Assembly (NCBI GenBank): GCA_001574975.1
Contig: KQ965736.1
Span: 189,725 to 253,724 of the forward strand
Reading direction: 5' to 3'
Length of the DNA: 64,000 nucleotides
Source: Gonapodya prolifera JEL478
Taxonomy: Eukaryota > Monoblepharomycota > Monoblepharidomycetes > Monoblepharidales > Gonapodyaceae
Of the stretch, positions 4,236 to 56,215 are shown one piece after another. Position 1 is the stretch's first letter, and the number at the start of each line of letters is the position of its first letter. The notes beneath the pieces are model-generated. The model worked only from the letters and a program-made list of their open reading frames with translations, did no database searches and was not told the DNA's origin. The position numbers were made by a program, and so were the translations under genes.

Positions 4236-6696
4236 CTACACACACAACTCTTTCGGCGGCGGCCGTTCCGGCACCCCACCCAGGACAAACTCCGCTGCCT
4301 CGAATGCTCGCCTTTCATCCGGCGTGAGCGGCACAGACGGGTCAAAGTCTCCAAAGTAGTCCCGTGGCGGCGCCGGTGGGGGAGCACCGAAGACTGACCC
4401 CCCGCCCGCGCCCAGTGACCCGAGCGCAGAGGTGCGTGTGGGGAGGGATCCAAATGCCGAAGCTGGTGCGGCAGATGGTTGCCCGAACGCGGATGCTGCT
4501 GTGGATGGCGGTCCGAACGCGGACGCCGGTGTGGATGGTGGACCGAATGCGGAGGCGGGTGCAGATGGTTTGCCAAACGCGGATGCGAGGGAGGACGCCG
4601 GGGCGAAGCCTGCAGGCTGTGCAGCGGACTGTCCAAACGCCGACGCTGCCTGGTTTGGTGCGGCCGGATGTCCGAATGCCGATGGTGCAGGAGCTGGTGC
4701 TGCCGGTTGTCCAAAGGCCGAAGCAGGTGTCGGTGCCGCCTGAGCAGGTTGACCAAAAGCGGTTGCTGGCGCAGCCCCAGCAGTCGCTCCAAACGCCGAC
4801 GTCGACGTGACAAACGCAGGTGCCGCGAGAGACGTCTGTCCAAACGCTGGGGCTGCAAGGGACGATTGCCCAAACGTGGGGGTCGCAAGTGACGACTGAC
4901 CAAACGCAGACGAAGAGGCGGGACGACCAAAGGCCGACGACGTTGTTGATGCGCCGAATGCAGAGGTGGTGCTGGACGTGCCGAACGCGGAAGTGGTGGT
5001 GGAAGAGCCGAATGCGGATGGGGCAGGAGTGGGAGTACCGAACGCAGAGGCGGGGGTCGGCGCACCCCCGAAAGCGGTGGGTGCAGGCGTGGGGGTACCA
5101 AATGCTGAAGGTCCAGTCACGCCCGCACCCGCACCCGCGCCGAATCCCGTCGTGGGCTGGGCTGGCGCCGCGCCAAACCCTGGTGCAGACGCAGCTCCTC
5201 CCGGCTGAAGACTCGCGCCGGCATGTCCCAACACTGCGGCAATCTTTGCCAGCACATTTGTGTCTGGCTTTGGTTCGTCCGGACCCCAAGGACGCGACGC
5301 GGCCTGCACGGCGGCGAGGGGGTTGGCGAGGGCGGAGGAGGATTGCGTTTGTATGGTGTTGGTGAGGTGCGACATGATGGTGGGCTGGGAGGGGAGGGAA
5401 AGAAGGGCGTACAACATACAACGTCAGCGTGGGTTGTTAAAACGGGGTTCACATGCCGAGAAGCGCACTTGTTTGTCGTGGATACCCTTCCTTTCAGCTC
5501 CTCTTGCATCCACTACTCAGGGCAACACGGAACCCTCACATGGCCCGGCCTTTTCCGACTTAGAGGACCAGGTGTAACACGTCGGGCGTTCGAAGGTAGT
5601 GCGCCTCCGGTCTTTCAACGACACCCTTCACGTTGAGATTCGTTTTTAACCTTTGAACACGTTCATACGCGCCATTATGGGGTGTGTGGACGGCTTCAAT
5701 CCTTGGACGGTTGGTCCTGATCATGCACGATGCTTACACCGTGACCATCCGAGCATTCCACACCGTGTATTGATCCTCGCCAAGCTCAGTGCCTTTCAAA
5801 TCCACTCCAACTCGCCTGGAATCACCTCCTGCTGTGACTCCCGTTGACGCCTGTGATACTCACATACTTGGCCCCTTCACCCCTCTTCCCCAAATCCCAC
5901 CACAACCACCTGGCCTCTTCGGGGCTCAGATCCGTCCCGGATATGATGTTACGAGGAGCGTCTTTCGAAGTCGTGTAGCAGGAGATGGGCCATATCGGAC
6001 GTTCGTGACGAAGGTCCGTTTCGAGGTTCTTGACGTCCCTGGGGGGACCGACGTATGACGAGGGGAAGGAAGGTAGTGAGAGGGATGAGACGAAAGGGGA
6101 CACAGTGTGTCATTAGTTCACACCCTTCCAGCTTGGAAAAACAGGACCACACCGAGTTGTCACTTCTAAATGACAGCTCTTCCGTGTTCTGGTTCAAAGA
6201 GCCGAACCCTTACGCATAATTACGTTATACTTCAATTTCACCTCCTCCGGAAGACGCGGCAAGCCGATGTCCAGTGTCGCTGTCTGTTGAATGGTTGCAT
6301 TGCTCCCCGAACGGACATTCGTCTCCACAGACCACGCCACAGGCGGCATCATAAAATGCTTACTCACTTGGCAAATGCTTCCTGTGATCCCTGTTCGCCT
6401 CCTGGCCCTGCAGTACTTCCTCCAAAACCAGCACCTGCACCGAACGCGCTCCTCCCCGCACCAAACGCCGATGCACCTGCTGCAGGACCAGCAGCAGCTG
6501 GTCGAGACCCAAATGCGCTCGCAGCCCCTCCGGATCCGAACGCGGAGCCGCCAAAAGCAGAGGGGCCTGTTCTCGCAGCTGGCGATGCCCCGAACGCAGA
6601 CACGGGTCGCTGAGCGGTTGTGAGATCGTGCGAGTTTCTACATTGGTTTCCGAATCTGCAGTTGCCCGCAAGAAAGAACTTGCATGGCTCGCTCAT
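4236..6696 (-). CDS. NUP42: Nup42/Amo1-type FG nucleoporin with N-terminal CCCH zinc finger
   Basis: Nuclear pore protein of the cytoplasmic face that anchors Gle1 and helps mRNA export. Exon 1 (6368-6696) starts MSEPCKFFLAGNCRFGNQCR, a CCCH zinc finger (C, C, C, H), followed by short SAFG repeats. Exon 2 (5868-6038) joins in phase and holds the conserved fungal Nup42 core: DLRHERPIWPISCYTTSKDA, then LSPEEARWLWW. The last large exon (about 5408-4236) encodes some 25 SAFG/AFG repeats and ends in the family C-terminus, with FEAAEFVLGGVPERPPPKEL just before the stop. The splice join between exon 2 and the FG exon is not resolved, because no acceptor in phase is obvious between 5420 and 5867. FG repeats lie both before and after the core. 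Confidence 0.82.
4280..5220 (-). repeat. FG-repeat coding array (SAFG units)
   Basis: Degenerate tandem units of about 10-20 codons, each containing AFG or SAFG with Ser, Ala, Pro and Thr spacers, lie within the last Nup42 exon. At the DNA level this is a CG-rich low-complexity block that creates long spurious open frames on the other strand. Confidence 0.85.
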
Positions 6697-26824: not shown

Positions 26825-29800
26825 ATGTCGCTTCCTGACGACGTGGAGCACATTCTTCGCTACGTGCGAGCGCAGTCGCTTGGCGACGAGTCGGAGTCGG
26901 ACGACGAGAGCCCCGTGTACCCGGATGTTGCACCACCGCGAGCTGATGGAGCGAAAGGACGCGATTTATTGGTACTGAATATCTGCTCTTCGCTCGCCAC
27001 GCACTTCTTTGAGTTGCTTTTCAAAGTACCTCTGCAATAATATCTCGGATCCATCCTCCTCTGGCGCCATTCAAACCCTCGTCATGACCCACAACAACTT
27101 CCCCCAAATCGACGGACTCGCCCAATTCTCTTCTCTGTCCTCCCTTTGCATTATCGCCCAAGACGTCTCAGAAATCAAGGGCCTCTATGATTTACCCATA
27201 GAGGAGCTCTGGATTTGCGAGAGCAAGGTTTCCCAAATAAAAGGACTGGAACGATGTCCGAGGCTCAAGCGCTTGTACCTGTGAGGACTGTTCATGGTTT
27301 TTTACCGCTTTCTGAAAATGTACGATGATATTTGATTCGTTTGTGCCTGGATTGTAGTTACGGCAACTATATCAACAAAATCGAAGGACTCGGAAACGTT
27401 TCGCAACTGGAAGTTCTGTGGCTCTCCGACAATCGTAGGTGGTCCGGTAGGCCGGGGTTCTTACTTTATCAACTGCACGCGTTCGTGACAGGGATACCTC
27501 ACATCGAAAATCTTAGTCACCTTAAGAAACTTCGTGAACTGAAGCTAGCGAACAATGAAATTGCCGAAATCGGCAACTCGCTGAAAGAAAACACATCTTT
27601 GCAGGTAAAAGCATTTCGTTGCAATCAAGCGATCCCGGGGATTTTGGCTGAAACCTGAAGCGACAAATGAAGGATTTGAACCTCGCCGGCAACAAGCTCT
27701 CTTGCTTCATTGACATTCTCAACCTCGCGTCCCTTCCTCGCCTTACAACTCTCACGCTGGGCAGCCCCGAGTTTGCGACCAATCCTCTGTGCCACCTCTC
27801 CAACTACCAAACACACGTAATTCATAATCTTCGAACCCTTCTCACCCTCGACGCGGTGGAAATCACTGACGAGTCCCGGAAAATGGTTGCGGCGACGTTT
27901 TTTAAAAAGAAAATGTACGTTGGGGTCAGCTTTTCTTTGAAAAAAAACGCATGCACGAAATGTTTGCTTTACCAGGTACTATAACATGCGAAATCAGACG
28001 GTAAAGCGGAATGCAAATTTCTTGAGAGAGCTTCTATCCGAATTCTTTCATTTCATGGATGTGGAATCGCTGTCGCTCCAAAGTCGTTTGAGCCAGCTTT
28101 GTAGGCGAATTGACCTGCAGTACGAAGCTTATTGCAGGTAAACCACCATGAATGTTGCTTGGTTTCCAAACTGAGGCATTTTGAATATTGCAGGAAAAAT
28201 AAAATGGAGCTCAGTTCAGGAGGAAACATCAGATTTGAACTTGTGGAGCGAGAAGACCGCGCCTTCAGTTTGTGCTCGACTCTTTTCCGCCAAGCATTGA
28301 GTCTAAACGAGCCAGACCATACTGCAGTACAGGTGCATTGTATTTCAAGGGTATTCAACAAACTTGACGTGATGGTGAGAACAAAGAGATGCAGAAGGGA
28401 ATGACACTGCGTTTAACAACCCACGCAACGTAGGAAAATCCACAAGTTGTTCAGGGCACGGATGTAACACCCCTTGATACTGAATGCTCGTACGAAATTT
28501 TTGCAAATCTGGATGTGGCACTTGCTTTTCTACAGTGCAATGGATGTATCAATACTTTTAACACTGGGGAAGCAGTGCAAAGTTCCAACCAAACAAAGTT
28601 TGCAGTACTTGCCTGCAGTGTGAAAGGAGGACAACAATCAAGTGAGCTCATAGTTCTGTATTCCTTTACCCTAATCCTTGTTAAATGCTGTTCCTCCGTT
28701 CTCAGACTTCTTCATTGAGTATACATTGGTTGAGATGGAGGAAAACAAGACGCCAATTGAATCCTTTGTTGCAAACTTGGTTCTTTCACCAAAGTTTGTT
28801 GATCCAAACATGCCACTGCATGTTCAGCAACAACTTGTACCATTCAAGAGACAAAATGTAGGAAGGGAATGAAACAAGTTCATTCTGTTCCTTTTATTAT
28901 TTCTATTCTTTTTATATCAGATGCAACAAGACTACAGACCTCAACACATGCTCACAACTTCTATGAGTGAGAACTTGCAGCTTGGGGCATCTGTATGAAT
29001 TTTTTTTGGTGCTTCATTTAAAAGGCTGAATAGTGATTTATTTCTTACTCCTTATCAGGTTGATGAGCCCTCTTTGAATATCATGACTTGGTGGTCTCTT
29101 ACCTCTTTAACAGAAGCAAGCCATCTTCTTTTTCAACCAACAATGGAATCAATAACAATTTTGGAGCTGAATTGTGCAAACATCCATGACCTCTCATGGC
29201 TTCCAACACAGTAGGTGTTATTTTAATCACATATATTTCTTAAAAAAGAAGTTGAAAAATCAGAAATGCACTCTACTCTCCAGATTGCTTTATATTCAGA
29301 TTATTAGCCTGAAAGGCAACAGCATTGAAGATGTGTCACCTTTGGCAAAGTTTCCATCATTGCAAGAAATATACCTGGACAACAATTTGATTGAATCACT
29401 GGATGTACTTGCTGAGCTCCCACACTTGAAAAAGATTGATGCAGCGCACAATAGAATTTCAAACATCAGAAATCTAGGAAACTTCAAGTGCTTAATCTCC
29501 CTGTGTCTAGACAATAACAGCATAAGTTCAGCTACTGCCTTTTCACAATGCAGGACACTCATGGAACTCTGTAAGTGTCAGCTGGTTTTATTGCTATCAA
29601 AGAATTACTTCACCACATCATGAGATAGATCTTGGAAACAATAATGTCACAGACATTTATAGTGTACTTTCTCTGAAAGCACTTCTTCGACTTGTTATTT
29701 TAGATTTATCTGGGAATCCAATTTTCTGTGGGAAAGATTACAGGTTCTTTGTCATATTTCATCTGGGGAAGTTGAAAGTAAGCCAATTCAGAGTAATCCA

Positions 29801-30919
29801 GTATCCTGTGTAAACAAACAGATTTGGACTCCAGATTTTAGATGGTGCTGCTATCACAAATGCAGATCAGCTACTATCGCAGGAGCTTTTTCTTGGGAGA
29901 CTGACAATAGAGCTTCTTGGAGAACAGCTTGGGACACACTCTCACAATGGCTTTAGTGGTATATCTGATCTTGACATTGCTAATTGCAAAATCAGACACC
30001 TGGACTGCTTTAGTGATGGGCTTTTCCCAAATTTAAGAAAGTTAAATGTGGACAACAACCTTCTCACATCACTGGATGCATTATTGTGCTTAAAGAACCT
30101 AGAGAGCCTGTCTGCAAATAATAACAGGATAGAACAGGTTTTCTCTGGATCAGCTAGAGAGACATCAGATGTCATTAAATCAAGAGTGTTTGCAAAGCTT
30201 TATGAGGTCTACATGGGAGGAAACCAGATATGCAAATTCTCAGATCTGTGCCTGACAGCCTTTCCAAGCTTAAGGATTTTGCATATACCAGGCAACCGTT
30301 TGCCCAAAGTAAGCTGAAACTCTTTGCTTCACAGGTATGAAATGACATAATAATTCCTTCACCCCAGATAGAAGGCATTGGGCACATGGAAGCATTGACT
30401 CAAATTGTTGCTGATAGAAATCAAATAAAATGCTTGGAGCCTAATGTGTTTTTTGGATGTCCTCGTTTGAAAGATCTGCACCTCAGAGAGAACAGAGTGA
30501 AGCACCTGGGACAATTCTTTGGAATAATCAGCCTTCGAACATTGCACCTCAATAGCAACCGCATAAGTGATATGGGGGAGCTTCAGGTGGGTTCCCCAAG
30601 TACAATGTTACTGACTCTTTTAATCTGAATCTATTTTACTGTGCTCTAGAAATTTGATCTTCCTAACCTCTTGGAAATCTCAATGTCAGGCAACCCTGTT
30701 ACAAGAAGATCAGCATACAGAAGACTCCTTATTCTCCATATTCCCAGTCTTTTAATCATTGACACTAAAGAAATTGACGTGGATGAGAGAGAGAAAAGCC
30801 AGGTTAGTCCCCCTGTCAAGTGTCATGAACCCAAGTCTATCATTTATCCAATATCAAATCATAGACATATGAGAGTGATTTGCAAAAAATTGCAGATCAG
30901 GGTGAAGACCAAAGTGTGA
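26825..30919 (+). CDS. LRRC9: LRRC9-like leucine-rich repeat protein (cilium-associated family)
   Basis: Very long LRR protein whose orthologues occur mainly in ciliated eukaryotes. From the ATG at 26825 the order matches the family: an acidic start; LRR block 1 (SSLCIIAQDVSEIKGL, IEELWICESKVSQIKGLERC, NKIEGLGNVSQLEVLWLSDN, KLRELKLANNEIAEIG, MKDLNLAGNKLSCFIDI); YYNMRNQTVKRNANF; the middle domain (GGNIRFELVEREDRAFSLC, VQVHCISRVFNKLDV, FFIEYTLVEMEENKTPIESF); LRR block 2 (LKGNSIEDVSPLAKFPSLQE, HLKKIDAAHNRISNIRNLGN); DYRFFVIFHLGKLKILDG; LTIELLGEQLG; and LRR block 3 (LRKLNVDNNLLTSLDAL, LRTLHLNSNRISDMGEL). It ends SGNPVTRRSAYRRLLILHIP and IIDTKEIDVDEREKSQ. Introns are short throughout. From about 28.45 kb the exons are AT-rich and nearly CG-free, unlike the first half. 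Exact last-exon splicing is uncertain. Confidence 0.92.
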
Positions 30920-33900
30920 AATCAACAGGGAATCTGTCTTTAAACAGTAAAACACCTTTGAGAGTTTCCCCTGTGGTGTTTGATGCTTTTAGCCTTCCAT
31001 AAACCTTTAAACTGTCAGAATATATGCCCTGGCAATCTTGAGTTATGAATCATTAAGATTGTTAACTTTAACAAACATCTTAAATACTCAAGAATTATAT
31101 ATAAGTAAAGCAAGACATCTTTGTGTAAAAGGAAAGAATAGCTTTCTTTTACACCTTTATGGTGATGTAAATCAACACCAGAAAATTTTCAGATCCTATT
31201 TGAAATGTCAGCTATTTTAACTGAGTAAAAATAAATCAACAGGTTACAGTTAGAGATCACAAGTGACAAGGTGGTGGAGCTTTTCAAGAATGTAAGCACA
31301 GACCTCAGGACATGTTGGAGTGTAAACTATAGATAAAATCTTGCCTTGGCCTTCCAAAAAGCTCAATAATTTGCCACTCTATTCCAGTCATCATGGTATC
31401 TCTGCAGTTGAGGTGTCTATAATAAGGTTCTGGAAAATTTTGCATGTCAGAACAATGGGCCTCAAAGGCTTGTGTCAGAGCATGTGACATAATTCTTTCC
31501 TTCAACCAGACTTACTGTAAATTGTCAGATCTTCTCAAAAATATCTAGCTTTGGAGCAGAAGTGAAAATATTATTTATTTCTATTTTAAATCCACATGAC
31601 AATGACTCCTTAACCTTTTTGTAACCACTTGTAGTGCCCATAGTGGCACTCAAATTAGTACTTTTTCCTCCCCAACCAGACTGGAAGGACCTCCCCTTCC
31701 TGGGGAGAGAAAGGCAGATACTTGATAGCAGGAGATTTTTTTTGTGTAGTTTTAAAAGATGTTGGGAGCAATCTCCATTGTGTGGAGGAGGGTCCCTTTG
31801 AATTGGCACTTTCTTCCCCCCCTCCCCCTTCTGATGACAAGGGAGGATCATGGCAATGAAAAAACGTTTTGTGCACTCAAGGAAAACACACATGAAAGTC
31901 TGCAGGTATGCAACCAATGGTTTGGAGTTTTGTGGTAACTCAAAAGTTGTGTTGCAACAGTGTGGAACCACATAAATCACAAAAGCTCTTAAGCATCCTA
32001 TCACATAGTTTCTTATGAGTGCATTGTACTCAATGAAATCTTGAGACAGGTCTCTTTGGATGGAGAAACAAAACTCCCACCTCAAACAAGCAACTGTTAT
32101 TTGCTATTGGCTACAAGAAAGTGAATGTAATATGATAGAAAATTTTTTCACTCATTTCACTCTTCTCCAAGCTCTTGTACCCACCTGCTGTGAAATCCTA
32201 GAGCAGCACTGGAGCAGAGGAAGAAATGATATGGCCCAGACATTGCAGAAATTCTGGTTTAACAACTGGTGCTATAGTGGTTCACTGGAAAATGATGATT
32301 AAAGATTTGGTACCAGCCCTAACCACATTTTGTGTCATTCTGTCGCAAGAACAATATTTATTGCAATTTTTGCAACAGGGGATTAAATTGCATATAATTT
32401 TAAATGTAGCAATGGCATCCATTATCCTCTACTTAGTTTGGTTAATGCATGATGTGTTTTTAAAGACTCAGCTGGAAGTTGTGCTGTGCCACAAGTCATT
32501 CAAAGATATGTGTGGGCCTGGAGACCTGCCTTATATAAAGGGCTTCTTTTAAGCCACCAAATTCAAGAAAAGTCTACCAATCTAAGTCATATTTTGGCCC
32601 AATTGCAGAGGAGTATTTTGGAGCAGATGGAATATTTTGATTTTGTCACACTATTTTTGAGCTTAAAGGTTATTTTATATAACTGTCAGAATACAATCAT
32701 AAATTTTTTTTTGTTCATGAAGAAACAAATAAACAAATGGAAATCTCATTCTGTGAAGTTTACTCTCAAAGAAATTGAAAGATGCTACAGGAATGATCTG
32801 GAATCCTACAAAAGTAGTTTCTTTGGTGCAAATATTCTCTATAAAGTAGGGGTGCAAATTTGGACCTGACTCACCCAGAGAATTACAGCTGTTTCCAAAA
32901 AGGTAAACAGGTAAGAATTTTCCCACCAAAATTCCAGTCCCTGTTCCCCCTGAGCTGTCTGCAATAAGTTGGTGGAAGGTTGGAAACCCAAGTTTTGGGG
33001 CATTCAGGGCCAGGAAGGGGGAGAAATAATTTTTGTTTGAATTATTAAAAAATCCTACCAACCCCAGTTGACAACCTTTTCTTGAACTGCTGTAATTTGT
33101 TCTAGATATGCACACCATTGTTGCCACTTTTTGTATGAAACTGGTGCTGATTTGGGATACCTCATTGGTAATATGGTGGGCAATTGAAATGTGATGTGGT
33201 GAGTATTTTCGGGAATGAGAACTTAATGCACAGCTGTAAATGTGGTACCAAAAGAATATCACAGACAAATGTTTGATAATTCAATCAAACTACCACAACA
33301 TTCCTAGAGTTTCTGGAATAGAGAGGCTTCACAATTTTTAAATTTACAAGTTGCACTTCATTTCTACAACCTGTGAATTTACAAGCCAAACAGTTGGTGT
33401 GCATATTGAAAATCACAACAAATCTGAATCTTGCCATGACAGATAGATTGAACATACAACAGCTACATCTCTTGATTTAGATACACAGAGAAAACATTGT
33501 CTCCATGGAGGGCATTGGTATCCCTTACAACATTGTCCCTCAACAATTCAATGGCAACTCTCCCTCTGGCTTCACCAAATAGCCATCCATGTGGAATTCC
33601 CAGGTGCATCACTCCCTGAGACCATGAACTGACCAGGGTACATGACAGGCACGGCCAGGAGGAATTCTGCATGCAAATCCAGGTGAAGGGGAAGGACAAC
33701 ACAGATGACATCAGGTGATCCAAAGAAAATATAATATGCATTGGACATTTAATGTCCTCCACAATTACTGATATGGTGGTTTTTTAATGGGTTTTGAACT
33801 ATTATGAGTTTGGGCTCCCAACTTGTGAAGGAAAAAGACCAGTTTTTTTTACATAAGTACAAGTGCTAATTGCTACCCAACCTAGGGGTGCTCCGTGAGA

Positions 33901-35970
33901 CCTGTGTGCTGCATGACCACGATCATATATGAGTGACACAAAGCATACATAGTAGGTGTGACATAGTCTCACCTGCAGGACCACAACGCCAAACGTGGGC
34001 TGTGTCCTGCAGGGGAGAATATATAAACTAGGGAACTGTTCCATGCTGTGCTGCCTAAGGTGCCTCGCCTTAACAGCACTGTGCCACACTCCACCCCACA
34101 CAGCCATGTAAGTGGCCGTCACCCAGCAGGCTGGGTGACACTAATGTTTTGTGTGCAGTAACTTGTAATTTTACCAGTTGCAAACCGCTCTAATAATCCA
34201 TGGTTTCCTGTCTAGAATGCATATGAAATCTACCCTTTCTTTTGGTGTTAAAAGGAAATATTACCAAGTACCAAGTTGTTAGAATTGCCAACTGACATTG
34301 TGATAAAGGAACATGGTGCATATTGAATTTTTTTTAATATAAACAACTGGCACTGGCCCCCCCCAAAAAAAAGGGTGAGACAAAGTTGGAGTGGTGCGGA
34401 CTTTGCTTTTGCTATGCTTGAAGCCAACCTTTTAAAAATGCAAATGTGTGGAGCATTGCATGACTAGTATGTGCTGCAGCCGTTCTTGAGCATGTACAGC
34501 AACACAGCCATTTTGAATTTGAAATACTGAGGTGTGACATTGAATAACAAACAACTCTATCTGACTTCACTTTATTAAAATGGCATCAACCACCCTGAAT
34601 TCTGAGTGCTGACTTTGGTGGGTTCAAATCTGACACATAGGTCAAGCATAATGGTTTTTCATTATGGTGGATTCATAATACATTGTGGCCTTTGTAAAAT
34701 GTTGTCAACAAATTTGATCTTGTAAAATTTTAGCTGTCTGTTTTGAGCTTGAATGGAGAGCTTGAATATCAAATCCAGTATTATCCCACTATTCCTTTGA
34801 TCCCTAAATCACACTGGATGTTGGCCAGAGCTCCCAGCTAACCCAACACAACTACCAGTTTATTTGAGTCATTTGAACTAACAATTCCCATTTCATTGCA
34901 ATGATTGCAATGGGAAAGTGGTTGGCATATGTTGTTCAGTATGCTGAGGGTTCCCCTAAACACACAATGTATGATCACTTTACCTGATGAACTTTCATGG
35001 TCATTTTCTGTTCTGTTATAACACCAGATTACTCAGAACAGTGGCAATAATGTGCTTGTTTAGAATAATGTTTTCAATTGGCTTAATGGCTTTCCCTTTT
35101 TGTGTACAGAGTGTGAGAATGGCCTTTCTCTCCCACCTCCAAAAACTCAATCATACAAAGTCAGACCACCAGTGGATTTTGGGAACAGAATGCCAAGGCA
35201 ATTTGACACAAAATCATACCAGATTTCTTTGATTTAGGTCCTTATTTCCCAAGATTTGGCATTTGTGTTGTACAAAATATTGCCCCAAAATTGTATTGCA
35301 CTGTGAACCTTGGCAGTCACATCCTTTCCCCCCAACCCCCCTCAATTCAAATAGAAACTTGCTTGCAAACTTCCTGAGGAACTCAGAGCAAAGCAAGGGT
35401 GTAGCCACATGCAAGCACATGAGAAGTTTGCCAAACTTAACAAAACAGAGTTGGAGTAATAAATGAATGAGCCCACATAATTTGCAGAGAAGAACCAATC
35501 ACCACACATCACTTGCTAACAAAGCCCTTGCAGAAATCTGAGCAGAGCAAGGGGTGCAGTGATTGTGTGAGCACTGCCTGCTGGATACACACTTGGTGTG
35601 GATACATTAGCACAGAAAATGGAAGGTCTTGAAGGCAAGTCAAGTACTTGAGAGTGCATGATCAATTCAAAATATTCTCCTCCAGAGTCCATTGAGATGC
35701 CACAATATATTCTCCTCTGCATTTCTTGTTTTGATATTTTAATATCTTGAGCAACACTCCCCTTTGAGTTCCTTGTGCAAGTACGGAGTTAGGGGACATA
35801 TTCATATGATGGAATGGGAAATGTTTGGAAGTCCCAGAAGCGTATGAAGAATCTCCCTTCAAATGAGTGGGGACCACATAGCTTCTGTGGTTTTGTGTGG
35901 TACTTCAATCTCCTTAATGTACATTCTGCATGAGCTCCTACAGTCCTTCTCCACAAGAAAGCTGTCCCTT
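28450..35970. other. AT-rich, CG-depleted block
   Basis: CG dinucleotides almost vanish here although flanking genes are full of them. By hand I find only about 15 CG between 31,000 and 35,900, where roughly 40% GC would predict well over 100. TG and CA are conspicuously common. The block covers the second half of LRRC9 (exons included) and all of the gene-poor stretch that follows. It ends abruptly near 35,970, where CG returns (tgcatcgcgcc) just before MLH1. Confidence 0.85.
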
Positions 35971-36019
35971 GCATCGCGCCTGTGGCTGTGGCCGACCATT
36001 CTGTGGAGGACAGCTGTTA
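30920..36019. other. 5.1-kb stretch without a recognised gene
   Basis: AT-rich, CG-poor DNA between LRRC9 and MLH1. It contains two long minus-strand open frames (31525-32085, 186 codons, and 32675-33268, 197 codons) with no family motif, a shorter one at 33463-33762, A and T runs, and the structured segment at 33.88-34.19 kb. I see no tRNA, no reverse transcriptase or transposase motif, no long terminal or terminal inverted repeat, and no tandem array. Confidence 0.6.
33880..34190. other. CG-retaining segment with four serial inverted repeats and a TATA-like motif
   Basis: Seven of the roughly 15 CG sites in the desert lie in this 300-base piece. Inverted repeats: AGGTG 33954-33958 with CACCT 33970-33974; CCTGCAGGAC 33972-33981 with GTCCTGCAGG 34004-34013; TAAGG 34056-34060 with CCTTA 34068-34072; GTCACCCAG 34118-34126 with CTGGGTGAC 34131-34139 (4-base loop). 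A TATA-like string (tatataaac) sits at 34020-34028. It could be a structured RNA, a promoter, or a remnant of a mobile element such as a solo-LTR-like or SINE-like piece; I cannot decide. Confidence 0.4.
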
Positions 36020-38925
36020 ATGACGAGGATTCAGCGACTCGACGAATCTGTAATAAACAGGATAGCTGCGGGCGAGGTAGGCGACCGAAATTGGTATGCG
36101 CTCGTGCCCGTCATCGCCCTTCGCGAATCCACAGGTCATCCAACGTCCTTCAAATGCACTCAAAGAAATGATCGAGAACGCCTTGGACGCAGGATCGACT
36201 TCGATTCAGGTGCTTTGTAAAGAAGGAGGACTCAAACTTCTTCAGATTCAGGACAATGGACACGGCATCCAGAAGGAGGATCTTCCGTTGGTTTGCGAAC
36301 GTTTCACCACTTCAAAACTCAAAAAATACGAGGACCTGAGAAGCATAAGCACTTTTGGCTTCCGTGGAGAGGCTTTGGCGTCCATATCCCACGTTGCCCG
36401 GGTCACCGTTACCACGAAAACTGGAGACTCCCCTTGTGCCTGGCGGTGGGTGAAAGCTTACTCCTTTTACTGGGAGCAATCAATGAATTGACGAATGGGG
36501 GGGTCATCTTGACTGTTGTTTGTGATGCCATGGGGCCACGCGACTTTCGCCACGAGTAGCGCACTTTACAGTGATGGCTGCCTCCTTCCAGCCAAACCCG
36601 GTGCCAGCCCGGACCCAAAGCCCTGTGCAGGAAACAACGGAACCCAAATTACGGTGACCGAGGTCTTTTACCAGCGAACTTATGAGAATTCCTAAATGCA
36701 ATTTCCATACATCAGGTTGAAGACATGTTCTTCAATAATCCGATTCGTCTAAAAGCATTTCGCAATTCAGCAGACGAATACAATCGTATCGTCGATGTGG
36801 TGGAGAAGTACGCACTGCACAACTCTTCTGTCGCATTTTCCTGCAAAAAAGTGAGGATTTCGTCATGGCGATTGCGCTTCTCCCTCGATCACAACGGCAC
36901 ATCTTAGGTTGGTGCTCCTCGCGCAGATGTACATACGCCAGGCTCCTCGACGGCTTCCAATTCCGTCCAGCTCATTTTCGGGAGCAGCGTTTCCAAAGAG
37001 CTCCTGGAGCTCCAATTCGAGAATCGCACCCTCGACTTTACTTGCAAAGGTCTCGTAACGAATCCGAACTATAATATGCGAAAGCTCAATTTCGTGCTTT
37101 TCATTAACAGTGAGTGGGGATGTAAATTGTCTCCGCTCCCTCAACCGTCATCTTTTTATCCGAATCTCTCCGAAGACCGATTAGTGGATCACCCTTCCAT
37201 AAAAAAGTCCATCGAGGCACTTTATTCTTTGCACCTTCCCAAGAACACGCATCCCTTCTTATACTTAGCCTTGTCCATCAAACCTGAAAACGTTGACGTC
37301 AATGTGCACCCGACAAAGCGCGAGGTCCATTTTTTGAACGAGGATGCCATCATTGCTTCTCTTTGCGACGAAATGGGAAAGATTCTCGCGAATGCGACGA
37401 AAAGTCGCACATTTTCGACCCAGGCAATAGTTGTCGGAGCGAAAACCGGTTCTCCAGGCGACCGAAGTGCTAGTTTTGAGGAGCCCGTGGATGCAATGGA
37501 GGACGTAACTCCTTCTGACATTGATAAAAACGCGCGGACTCTCACTGCCTCCCGGACGACAGCCAAACAGACACTTCACAGTGTCAATAAAACCGGGGGG
37601 TCATCGGGTGTCGGTCCACAGCGCGCCCAACCCTCTCGAGTCCCAGAAAATCGATTGGTTCGAACAGATGCAACGGTAAGAACTTTGGACGCTTTTGTGA
37701 GAAAACAGGAGCCGCCACAACGCACTGCTTCGATACATTCCGCATCGAACGAGAGGAATTCCCAGCACAAACAGGGTGGAATGATGGACACCGACGGCGG
37801 GTTAGCTTTGTGTCGTTTGCTGGATCTTCTGTCTTTTCGAGTCCTTCGAATGATTGCAGAGACCTGCCCCGAGCTGGTCGAAAATGGATCGATATTCGAC
37901 TCACTAGCATCTTGGAGCTGAGAGAAGAAGTCGAGTCAAAGGAGCATAAAGGTGATGATGACTTGTTTGGGACCAGTGGACAAAACGAGAAAAGCTGACT
38001 CCGCACTCTTGCATGCAGGAATCACGGAAGTGTTCCGGGAGCATACATTTGTTGGGTGCGTGGATAATCAGCTGGCATTAGTTCAACATCAAGTTCGACT
38101 GTTTATGGTCAATTATGTGGAGATCAGGTGGGATGTCTTTTATTGTCGCAGAAATGAAAGTCCGATACAATCCGATTTGGTTTTTCTTCCAGTCGTGAGC
38201 TCTTCTACCAAGTGTTCTTGAGACTCTTTTCCAACCTTGGCTGGTATCTTTGACACCAGAATACGGCAGCCAACTCACTCACAAGCCTATCGTCGCAGGC
38301 CATGTACTACTCCCCCCAACCCCGCTGCGAGAGCTCCTTATTGTGGCTCTCGAGGAAGAGGAACGTGATCGAGGGTCCTGGGATCCCACCATGAAAACGA
38401 AAGATGAAATCGCAGGAGTAGGTGTTAGGCGCAGCGCGCATTCTTGTGCTTTTTAACACGGTTTTACGACAGGAGATCGTGGATATACTTGTCGAACGTC
38501 GTGAGATGCTCGAGGAATACTTCTCGTTTCAAATCGATGAAGGCCGCAATATATGTGCCCTCCCACTGGTCTTGAAAGGGTATACACCAGTAATGGAGAA
38601 GTTACCAACATTCCTCCTGCGCCTCGGCACTGAAGTCAACTGGGATACGGAAAAGGACTGTTTTCGGTCCTTGGTGGAAGAGTTTTCCAACTTCTACGCG
38701 CTGGAGCCGCCAGAGCTTTACCTAGAGGACCAATCTGAGGGAGATGGAGAAAGTTCGACGGGCCGCGACGCAAATGCGAATCAATCCTACAGTTGGACAG
38801 TGGAACACGTCGTATTTCCTGCGATTCGAACATTTCTCATAGCCCCGAAAAGTTGGTCTAAGGGCGGAGAGATTCTGGAAATCGCCAATTTGCCAGACCT
38901 GTATAAATGTTTCGAAAGGTGTTGA
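36020..38925 (+). CDS. MLH1: DNA mismatch repair protein Mlh1
   Basis: MutL-family ATPase acting after MutS-alpha/beta recognition of mismatches; partner of Pms1/Pms2 and Mlh3. Exons 36020-36076, 36135-36445, 36560-36653, 36716-36850, 36908-37109 and from 37176 join in phase. GHKL ATPase motifs are intact: [71 protein letters not shown] and [20 protein letters not shown], followed by the transducer motif [21 protein letters not shown] poorly conserved linker follows, then the C-terminal dimerisation domain: [52 protein letters not shown] and the invariant C-terminus [13 protein letters not shown] at 38925. It converges with INSIG, with 112 bases between stops. Confidence 0.97.
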
Positions 38926-54177: not shown

Positions 54178-55099
54178 GAGAACGATTGGATGTAGAATAA
54201 TAAAGAGGGAAATGAGGGGGATTTAAAATGAAATCGATCCTTAGACCTCCTGAGGGTCTCGGCGACTTTTTCATCCGACCATCTCCCAACTCAGGATGTA
54301 CCATAGGGCTGGGGAGCATGATGCGCACATGAGGGAGCCGATGCAAAGCTTATTGACCATCCACTTTTAGAAATGGTAATGGAATTGCAAGAGGTAGGCT
54401 CCTCCAAAACGAGCTGCCGGTCCTTCTTGGGAATCCTATGACCTCGCGCACGCTAGAGTGAAGTTGATTTCAAAGTTCGCGATTCGTGAGGAGAGAGCGT
54501 TAAAAACGACATTCGTGGGGAGAGCATCGAACCGTGGTCAAAACTACTCTGGCGTTCTCCTCCCCCTTTTTCTCTTCTCTCTTCCCTTTCTTCCCTTTCC
54601 CTTTCCTTTTCTTCTTCTTTTTTTCTGTGGTGTTTCCCCAAAGCTATGAGTATCTGTATTGTACTAGTTGATCAGAGTGTGGGAATCCAAACACTTCTGA
54701 TCGGCACCATTTGGTTCACGTGAAGAATGCATTTTTCAACTGAATACGGAATCGCACTGAAGTCAAATATCACAGAGTTCTGTCACCAATAGTGAGAGCT
54801 TGTGACGCTCACACTTCCCCCAATCACCACTCCGTACCACCACTCTCACTCTTTCGATCGCTCCTTCCATTACACTTTCCCTCTTCTCTCTGCCCCCGCC
54901 TCTCCCACCTCTGATTGTTTGCCGCAAGAAATGGAAAATTTTGCATGTAATGGTGGAGAGAATACACGAAGCACAGTTGCTCTACTGACTCCAAGACGTC
55001 CACACTGAGTATGAAGCAGCTACACTCGTTGTCGAAACAAGGAGTCAGGATGTGCATTCACAATCCTCCCATCCCCCTTCCTCTTGTCCATTCTCACCG
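54178..55099. other. Intergenic stretch with a polypyrimidine tract
   Basis: Upstream of the MFS gene. From about 54555 to 54635 the plus strand is almost wholly C and T (repeats of CTTTCC and CTTCTT). The remainder, including 54800-55090, shows short open frames only. This is a possible promoter tract for either flank. Confidence 0.5.
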
Positions 55100-55459
55100 T
55101 CAGTGATGCTTTACGGCCTCCTTTATCCCAGCCACCCCTTCTCCAAAGATTTCCTTGTTGTCACCAACCTTCAATGGTTCTCGACTTTCATGTTTGTCGG
55201 GCCCATGGCCGGTATCAGTCACTGGCGCTCCCTTCGGGAGATCTTTGAGGTGAACGAGGTTGGAAATGAAGGAGGGGAGGTGGAGTTGAAAGTTTGAGTG
55301 AAGAGATAGTGTGTTGAGGGATTGGTGAACGGTGGGAGAACACTTGTTGACGAGTTTTCGAAGCATCCAAGTCGTTTCACCTTCGAGGGCAACGGGTTGA
55401 TTAACTGATTCTTTCTTTTCATCGTCTTTCACAGAACTGTCTTTCGATGGAGAAGACAT
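55100..55459 (-). CDS. Hypothetical small protein (about 119 residues)
   Basis: A single open frame from an ATG at 55459 (MSSPSKDSSVKDDEKKESVN) to a stop at 55100, with a charged N-terminus, a short amphipathic middle (TTWMLRKLVNKCSPTVHQSL) and a Gly/Lys-rich end (GDNKEIFGEGVAGIKEAVK). No family recognised. An upstream in-frame extension to 55534 exists. The charged hydrophilic composition looks real, but one ORF of this length could be chance. Confidence 0.4.
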   Translation of the reverse strand: MSSPSKDSSVKDDEKKESVNQPVALEGETTWMLRKLVNKCSPTVHQSLNTLSLHSNFQLHLPSFISNLVHLKDLPKGAPVTDTGHGPDKHESREPLKVGDNKEIFGEGVAGIKEAVKHH

Positions 55460-56215
55460 GTTGGAAGTGAGGTTTGGTCGAAGGCACAGAGACGCCAACC
55501 ACCACACCCAATTATACTTTCTTCTTCCACTCACTTTTTGCCAGAAACTCTATCCTTTTTGGTCAACTAGACTATCAACCTTGATTGGCGTCCGAAATAA
55601 CAACACAACATTTGTATCGCTTTGAAGTTTTATCTCAAATAAAATAAATTGATCCTAAGAAGGACGAATGTACCATTTCGAGCGTTGGCTGGTGGGGAGG
55701 GCTTCCAAACATGACTTGGACCGGGCATTCCGTGGTGTGACAGTTTGTTGTGTGTTCCAAACATCCATTGATTGAGTTGATTCGAAGATGGTGAGGCTGT
55801 TAGAGCAGTCCAAGCGGCTTCGCTGGACTCTATTGTCTGCTTCTCGTTTGTTCGGGACCTTACTTCGCGGAAATCCTTCAAATCATCTCGAAATCGTGAA
55901 GTGATAGGATTCCTTGTTCGGAAAGGATCAGCGGCAGGATGGGCAGGAAATTGCTTTCAGTAACAGCACAAGTACCACGCACGTGAATGGCATAGCCATC
56001 CGTCCGTTGGCGTGCTTGCCTCGGATCCGGTGAAGTGGATTGCTGAAGTTCCTCATGGATTGGAGGAATGCCAGGAGCCTGAACACTTGAAGCCTTGCTG
56101 CCCTCCCTGTAATACACGAGCTCGTCTGGATATTCGCTTCGATTCAAACGGCTCTGTTTCGGTTGGCCCTTGTGGTAGACAGCACTAACTTTGAACCGTC
56201 CAATCGACCCAACAG
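55460..56215. other. Gap before MCM2, probably holding its first exon
   Basis: The MCM2 frame is closed by a stop just upstream of 56216, so a short 5' exon with the start codon should lie here, but I cannot place it. A minus-strand open frame at 55878-56147 has no motif. Confidence 0.4.

What the first reader, a model, noticed from the sequence alone, without database searches (positions are those of the whole stretch)
28450..35970. A 7.5-kb AT-rich block almost free of CG dinucleotides in otherwise CG-rich DNA
By hand count there are about 15 CG in 31,000-35,900, against well over 100 expected from base composition, while TG and CA are common. That pattern is what long-term deamination of methylated CG leaves. 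Flanking genes show no such loss. A methylated, heterochromatin-like island of this size in a zoosporic fungus, with a sharp right edge, would be notable.
Basis: partly seen in the sequence, partly recalled or inferred. Interest (0 to 1): 0.75.

Follow-up and report, generated by a model that had tools for sequence, protein, structure and literature searches.

The report
CpG-eroded island inside intact gene
A 7.5-kb stretch of an otherwise normal genome has lost over nine in ten of its expected CG pairs, mostly to TG and CA, the scar that long-lived DNA methylation leaves; it seems to start in the middle of a still-intact gene and it stops at the start of the next one.

Summary
Window 28494-35972 holds 25 CG against 288 expected (o/e 0.09; GpC 1.02). 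One-kb windows elsewhere average 0.97, and no second such segment exists in the 64 kb. Both edges are sharp: 28494-28538 and 35951-35974.

The missing CGs reappear as TG and CA in near-equal numbers (CG -256; TG +155, CA +128; 643 TG and 639 CA). By a hand-made gene model the left edge lies inside one intact 17-exon LRRC9-like gene. Downstream of it, silent CGs became TG or CA, Arg codons switched from CGN to AGR, and third positions outside CpG context did not change. That argues against foreign DNA and a left-edge misjoin. About 5 kb of seemingly non-coding DNA follows, ending at the start of an MLH1-like gene.

Best reading: a stably CpG-methylated island between two genes' 5' parts, whose 5mC has long been deaminating while selection kept the protein. 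Methylation itself, the organism and the right-hand join could not be tested. CpG erosion by 5mC is known. Unusual here: no transposon found, a mid-gene edge, and an edge at a gene start.

The parts
28494..35972 (.). CpG-depleted island (25 CG, 288 expected)
   Evidence: edges 28494-28538 and 35951-35974 at two log units
26825..31002 (+). LRRC9-like gene, 17 exons in a hand-made model, 1063 aa, frame open throughout; leucine-rich repeats on both sides of a central region without them
   Evidence: splice sites were picked by eye to keep the frame open, no transcript. LRR families by Pfam (best stretches 130-282, 596-634, 904-960) and PDB sequences. LRR-ART-LRR layout of LRRC9 from PMC7955679. 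The name LRRC9 was first recalled and then matched by layout only.
28434..28641 (+). Exon 8 of the model, which spans the left edge and is open across it; it lies in the central region, which has no database match of its own
26825..28493 (+). CpG-normal 5' part of the gene (416 codons; Arg 19 CGN, 6 AGR)
28494..31002 (+). CpG-eroded 3' part of the gene (647 codons and stop; Arg 5 CGN, 22 AGR), no premature stop in the model
31003..35972 (.). About 5 kb without recognisable gene, transposon or known RNA; CG o/e 0.08
   Evidence: mean period-3 signal 0.74, against 1.57 in the eroded gene part and 1.9-2.4 over the flanks; 46 of 53 ORFs of at least 45 aa scanned, best Pfam match Arc_MA 2.5e-4, below its cut-off; no Rfam match (whole window, for 33700-34400)
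33963..34022 (-). Strong hairpin (19-nt arms, 89% complementary), in a small pocket with more CG (33881-34200: 7 CG, 20.5 expected, GC 0.51)
35930..37921 (+). MLH1-like mismatch-repair gene (part read, not spliced). Two in-frame candidate start codons: 35930 (about 40 bp left of the edge) and 36020 (about 50 bp right of it). CpG-normal right of the edge
   Evidence: frames, ORF 35918-36220; Pfam DNA_mis_repair 9.8e-26 for 36908-37921; likeness of the N-terminal part to MLH1 is recalled

Best explanation
The block is a CpG-methylated chromatin island that has stayed methylated in the inherited genome for a long time. 5-methylcytosine at CG deaminates to T, so CG turned into TG on one strand and CA on the other until about 9% of the expected CGs were left. 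The island probably starts in the 5-kb non-coding stretch, reaches into the 3' part of the LRRC9-like gene, and is stopped on the left by that gene's own active 5' region (about 1.7 kb from its ATG) and on the right by the 5' end of the MLH1-like gene. Selection removed deaminations that broke the protein, so silent CGs went and Arg was rewritten from CGN to AGR. Shown: CpG-specific loss, its balance with TG and CA, sharp edges, an open gene model, and the same non-CpG background on both sides. Inferred: 5mC as the cause, heterochromatin, the place of nucleation, and the 5' ends as boundaries.
For: Loss is CG-specific and balanced: CG -256, TG +155, CA +128 against outside ratios, with 643 TG and 639 CA in the block. 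Within one gene, left to right of the edge: third-base C before G falls from 0.37 to 0.01 while T rises from 0.22 to 0.53 (A 0.20 to 0.23, G 0.20 to 0.23); NCG falls from 0.31 to 0.03 while NCA rises from 0.19 to 0.59; GC at third positions outside CpG context stays at 0.53 and 0.51 (P 0.56). CG density per codon position in the eroded part, as a share of the intact part, follows protein constraint: 17% in Arg codons, 7% in NCG, 1.6% across codon boundaries. Arg CGN:AGR goes from 19:6 to 5:22 (Fisher P 6e-5). A simulated 92% CpG deamination of 10 kb on each side gives a dinucleotide profile near that of the block. The 25 survivors show no strong 5' neighbour preference (C 7, A 8, T 7, G 3), against a TpCpG-type process. 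TpA shows no RIP-like rise (0.59 against 0.54 outside). Literature passages: CpG depletion by 5mC deamination in fungal transposons (PMC4352252; PMC12774611); 6mA at 5' gene ends with 5mC peaking where 6mA diminishes, in species with gene-body 5mC (PMC12695648).
Against: No methylation data and no methyltransferase genes could be examined. CpG depletion also occurs in Naegleria with very low 5mCG, and prasinophytes have high 5mCG with enriched CpG (PMC12695648), so the footprint is not proof. 5mC is reported as confined to transposons in Spizellomyces and previously reported early-branching fungi and as near-undetectable in early-diverging fungi (PMC13297926), and no transposon was found here. 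In Amoebidium 6mA and 5mC coexist just after the gene start, so mutual exclusion is not general. The block is more AT-rich (GC 0.393) than CpG loss from the flanks alone predicts (0.449), though its non-coding part may always have been AT-richer. NCC codons also fall, from 0.34 to 0.12, which CpG deamination does not explain. No other segment of the window shows such loss. The gene model was made by eye, and the edge lies in its part without database support.
Confidence: 0.66

Rival explanations
1. A CpG-directed RIP-like process: the stretch was once a repeat or lay next to one, was mutated quickly at CG sites in sexual cycles, and the damage leaked into the LRRC9-like gene.
For: CpG-type C-to-T signatures are known in fungal transposons, for example Microbotryum (PMC4352252). 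A hairpin sits in a pocket of the block that kept more CG.
Against: A fast process should leave stops and lost Arg. The 3' part of the gene model (647 codons) has no stop, and Arg was largely rewritten to AGR, which needs transversions and time; Arg share falls only from 6.0% to 4.2%. The longest direct repeat listed in 27500-37000 is 32 nt at 72% (20 of 39 families shown), and no transposon domain passed. Survivors show no TpCpG preference.
Confidence: 0.12
2. Gene-body methylation of the LRRC9-like gene, biased to its 3' part and running past its end, as in animals or some algae.
For: The edge lies about 1.7 kb after the ATG. Expressed genes of Cyanophora gain some methylation towards the gene end (PMC12344493), and Amoebidium has gene-body and transposon methylation (PMC11244446).
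Against: The depletion runs a further 5 kb past the gene, and it is as strong in the non-coding part (0.08) as in the gene part (0.11). No other segment of the window shows it.
Confidence: 0.12
3. Introgression or gene conversion from a related lineage whose whole genome is methylated and CG-poor.
For: Sharp edges, one of them inside an exon, could be recombination breakpoints. The extra AT content would fit.
Against: Third positions outside CpG context and intron lengths (55-77 nt) agree on both sides. The right edge falls within about 50 bp of candidate start codons of the next gene, which a random breakpoint would rarely do (inference).
Confidence: 0.05
4. Assembly chimera or contamination.
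For: The organism is unknown, no reads are held, and the right edge is abrupt.
Against: In the gene model exon 8 is open across the left edge and nine more exons follow, with leucine-rich repeats before and after. The non-coding part is joined to the eroded gene part and shares its signature. The right join stays open.
Confidence: 0.05

Closest known systems
5mC-driven CpG depletion of transposons in fungi (Austropuccinia psidii, PMC12774611; Microbotryum, PMC4352252; passages seen)
   Same: CG lost by C-to-T change, without CpA-type RIP
   Different: No transposon found here; the eroded DNA includes the 3' part of an intact host gene with introns
Mosaic and gene-body methylation of invertebrates, plants and Amoebidium appalachense (PMC11244446, passages seen)
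   Same: Only part of the genome affected, with 5' gene ends spared
   Different: Here one island in 64 kb, reaching 5 kb past the gene up to the next gene start; no other segment of the window is eroded
Repeat-induced point mutation (RIP) of Ascomycota (PMC4352252, PMC13297926, passages seen)
   Same: C-to-T change in a bounded block
   Different: CpG context instead of CpA; no TpA rise; frame kept open; no long repeat listed in the block
3'-biased gene methylation in Cyanophora paradoxa (PMC12344493, passage seen)
   Same: 3' part of a gene affected, 5' part spared
   Different: Measured methylation there, sequence footprint only here; here it runs on past the gene

Membership tests
5mC deamination footprint | CG loss with matching TG and CA gain on both strands, GpC unaffected | tested here: met
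5mC deamination footprint | Change at silent sites limited to CpG context, background unchanged | tested here: met
   with one exception: NCC codons fall too
5mC deamination footprint | 5-methylcytosine present at the remaining CG sites | not testable with these tools
   no methylation data; no genome held
RIP of the Ascomycota type | CpA to TpA change, TpA excess | tested here: not met
   TpA o/e 0.59 against 0.54, CpA raised not lowered
RIP of the Ascomycota type | Target is a repeated sequence | tested here: inconclusive
   only short, diverged repeats listed in 27500-37000; genome-wide copies cannot be searched
Methylated transposon relic | Transposon coding domains or terminal repeats | tested here: not met
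   46 of 53 ORFs of at least 45 aa scanned: best Arc_MA 2.5e-4, 21.5 bits against a cut-off of 28.5; next RasGEF 0.0075, cut-off not shown. No long terminal repeats among those listed (20 of 39 direct families, 25 of 50 inverted pairs). A fully decayed relic is not excluded.
Gene-body methylation | Erosion confined to the transcribed gene, many genes affected | tested here: not met
   extends 5 kb past the gene; no other segment in the window
LRRC9 | LRR - ART-like - LRR architecture | tested here: inconclusive
   LRRs before and after a central region without LRRs; the ART-like fold of that region was not tested
Zoosporic fungus as host | Phylogenetic placement | not testable with these tools
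   no eukaryote collection at hand; COPB1 search of viral contigs gave no relative

The most novel reading that the evidence does not exclude
A transposon-independent CpG-methylated island with boundaries fixed to within tens of bases has been inherited at the same place for a long evolutionary time in a probably fungal host. It covers the 3' part of a working host gene and ends at the start of an MLH1-like gene. That would be a stable methylation domain over functional DNA in a lineage where 5mC is thought to be confined to transposons, with the DNA sequence itself recording its long-term map.
Probability: 0.28. Interest if true: 0.72.

Novelty: new variant of a known kind. Interest (0 to 1): 0.52.

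Why it matters
If methylation is confirmed, one gene carries its own control: same protein, same intron sizes, same background, with only one part methylated over evolutionary time. It would let one measure how 5mC mutates coding DNA, how selection filters it, and how precisely a methylation boundary can stay in place. It would also question the view that 5mC in early-diverging fungi is limited to transposons, if the host is one.

Tried and rejected
Foreign DNA or left-edge chimera: rejected on the open exon across the edge and equal non-CpG composition. CpA-type RIP: rejected. Hidden gene in 31.0-36.0 kb: a minus-strand ORF (33463-33783) looked protein-like by eye, but Pfam gave no family and PDB nothing below E 1.2, and period-3 signal is absent. 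Known RNA: none; no tRNA by a bacterial-code scan. Relatives of the COPB1 piece in viral contigs: none. CHG-type loss: CAG and CTG not depleted in the non-coding part. Weak Pfam matches in the non-coding ORFs (12 families at E up to 0.1; Arc_MA 2.5e-4, RasGEF 0.0075 best) were taken as chance; no shuffled control was run. Another CG-poor spot, about 54.3-55.6 kb, has low GpC too in the 1-kb windows there (0.74 and 0.66), so looks compositional.

Papers: searches. Passages only were seen of PMC12695648 (plus its section 9 in full), PMC13297926, PMC7862722, PMC7955679 (plus section 9), PMC11244446, PMC12344493, PMC4352252, PMC12774611, PMC11258239. I saw no bounded CpG-eroded island over part of an intact gene in these passages or listings; this is not a full literature check.

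Limits of numbers: Fisher counts were typed, and some counts (33/89, 1/133, 126/237, 194/384) were rebuilt from rounded fractions. In one search a label says P(>=8), but the value, 1.3e-4, was computed for the observed 7 CG; that pocket was chosen after seeing the data, as was the hairpin.

Full report
Check of the observation. A likelihood scan places the block at 28494-35972: 25 CG seen, 288 expected, against 0.975 +- 0.10 per 1-kb window elsewhere. Two-unit support for the edges is 28494-28538 and 35951-35974; no other segment in the 64 kb comes close (11.5 nats against 331).

Anatomy. By a hand-made model the left edge lies inside exon 8 of a + strand gene at 26825-31002, with 17 exons, GT-AG introns of 55-77 nt, and 1063 amino acids without a stop. 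Splice sites were chosen by eye to keep the frame open, so the model is not independent proof. The independent support is that Pfam and PDB sequence searches find leucine-rich repeats on both sides of a central region without them; the edge falls in that central region. The layout fits LRRC9, whose LRR-ART-LRR structure and presence in Fungi are described in PMC7955679; the ART part was not tested. After the gene come about 5 kb (31003-35972) without coding periodicity (0.74 against 1.57 in the eroded gene part), without a convincing Pfam match in 46 of 53 ORFs of at least 45 aa, and without known RNA or tRNA. The right edge lies at the start of an MLH1-like gene: in-frame ATGs stand at 35930 and 36020, about 40 bp left and 50 bp right of the edge (domain further on). 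Further right are INSIG-like and coatomer-beta genes on the - strand, CpG-normal.

What happened to the CGs. Relative to outside ratios the block lacks 256 CG and has 155 TG and 128 CA too many; raw counts are 643 TG and 639 CA. TpA is not raised, so this is not CpA-type RIP. The codon comparison inside the one gene is the strongest evidence. At third positions before G (second base not C), C falls from 0.37 to 0.01 and T rises from 0.22 to 0.53, while A and G hardly move. In NCx codons not before G, G falls from 0.31 to 0.03 and A rises from 0.19 to 0.59. Third positions outside CpG context keep GC 0.53 and 0.51, like open frames of MLH1 (0.47), COPB1 (0.51) and INSIG (0.49). Arg codons go from 19 CGN and 6 AGR (of 416 codons) to 5 and 22 (of 647); Arg falls from 6.0% to 4.2%, while Cys, His, Gln and Trp change little. 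CG density relative to the intact part is 17% in Arg codons, 7% in NCG and 1.6% across codon boundaries, the order that protein constraint predicts. CA across codon boundaries also rises (o/e 1.08 to 1.51), so not only silent changes were kept. One result does not fit: NCC falls from 0.34 to 0.12. The block is also more AT-rich than CpG loss alone predicts.

Mechanism. Known chemistry (5mC deaminates to T) explains the pattern with one assumption: long-lasting CpG methylation of this block in the inherited genome. If the block is at equilibrium, counting transitions only, CG changes about 26 times faster than TG or CA reverts (rough). The edges suggest a methylated domain confined between the active 5' part of the LRRC9-like gene and the 5' end of the MLH1-like gene. 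In species with gene-body 5mC, 6mA holds the 5' gene ends and 5mC peaks where it fades, though both coexist near the gene start in Amoebidium (PMC12695648). Chytridiomycota and Blastocladiomycota generally have low 6mA, with exceptions among chytrids (PMC11258239). Where the methylation starts is unknown; a hairpin at 33963-34022 (minus strand, 33940-34050 folded, z -5.1) sits in a pocket with more CG.

Caution. CpG depletion without much 5mC occurs in Naegleria, so only methylation data can settle this. The organism is not known: no genome is held and no eukaryotic collection could be searched.

Verdict. Real, not chance, not RIP of the Ascomycota type, and unlikely to be a left-edge misjoin. 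Most likely a long-lived methylated island. CpG erosion itself is known. The variant is its place: no transposon found, part of an intact gene, and edges placed within tens of bases, one of them at the next gene's start.

Noticed in passing
window 33963-34022: Strong hairpin (33940-34050 minus strand, fold z -5.1), with a second shorter inverted repeat near 34118-34139 (folds not significant, z -1.2 and -1.4) and a TATATAA next to it; no Rfam match. No 12-base stretch of it recurs elsewhere in the window.
   Followed up: partly
window 28494-31002, coding positions: NCC codons fall together with NCG in the eroded part of the gene (0.34 to 0.12), which CpG deamination does not explain.
   Followed up: no
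window 33463-33783 minus: ORF whose end looks protein-like by eye, without database support.
   Followed up: partly
window 32453-32869 plus: ORF with a Pfam Arc_MA (Gag-related by recall) match at 2.5e-4, below the curated cut-off; probably chance.
   Followed up: partly
window 4471-5018: Four 27-39 base tandem repeat arrays, in a region with long overlapping open frames.
   Followed up: no
window 54301-55600: Lowest CG outside the block (o/e 0.60 in the lowest 1-kb window), but GpC is low as well in the 1-kb windows there, so it looks compositional.
   Followed up: partly
window 58738: A single N, the only ambiguous base of the window.
   Followed up: no
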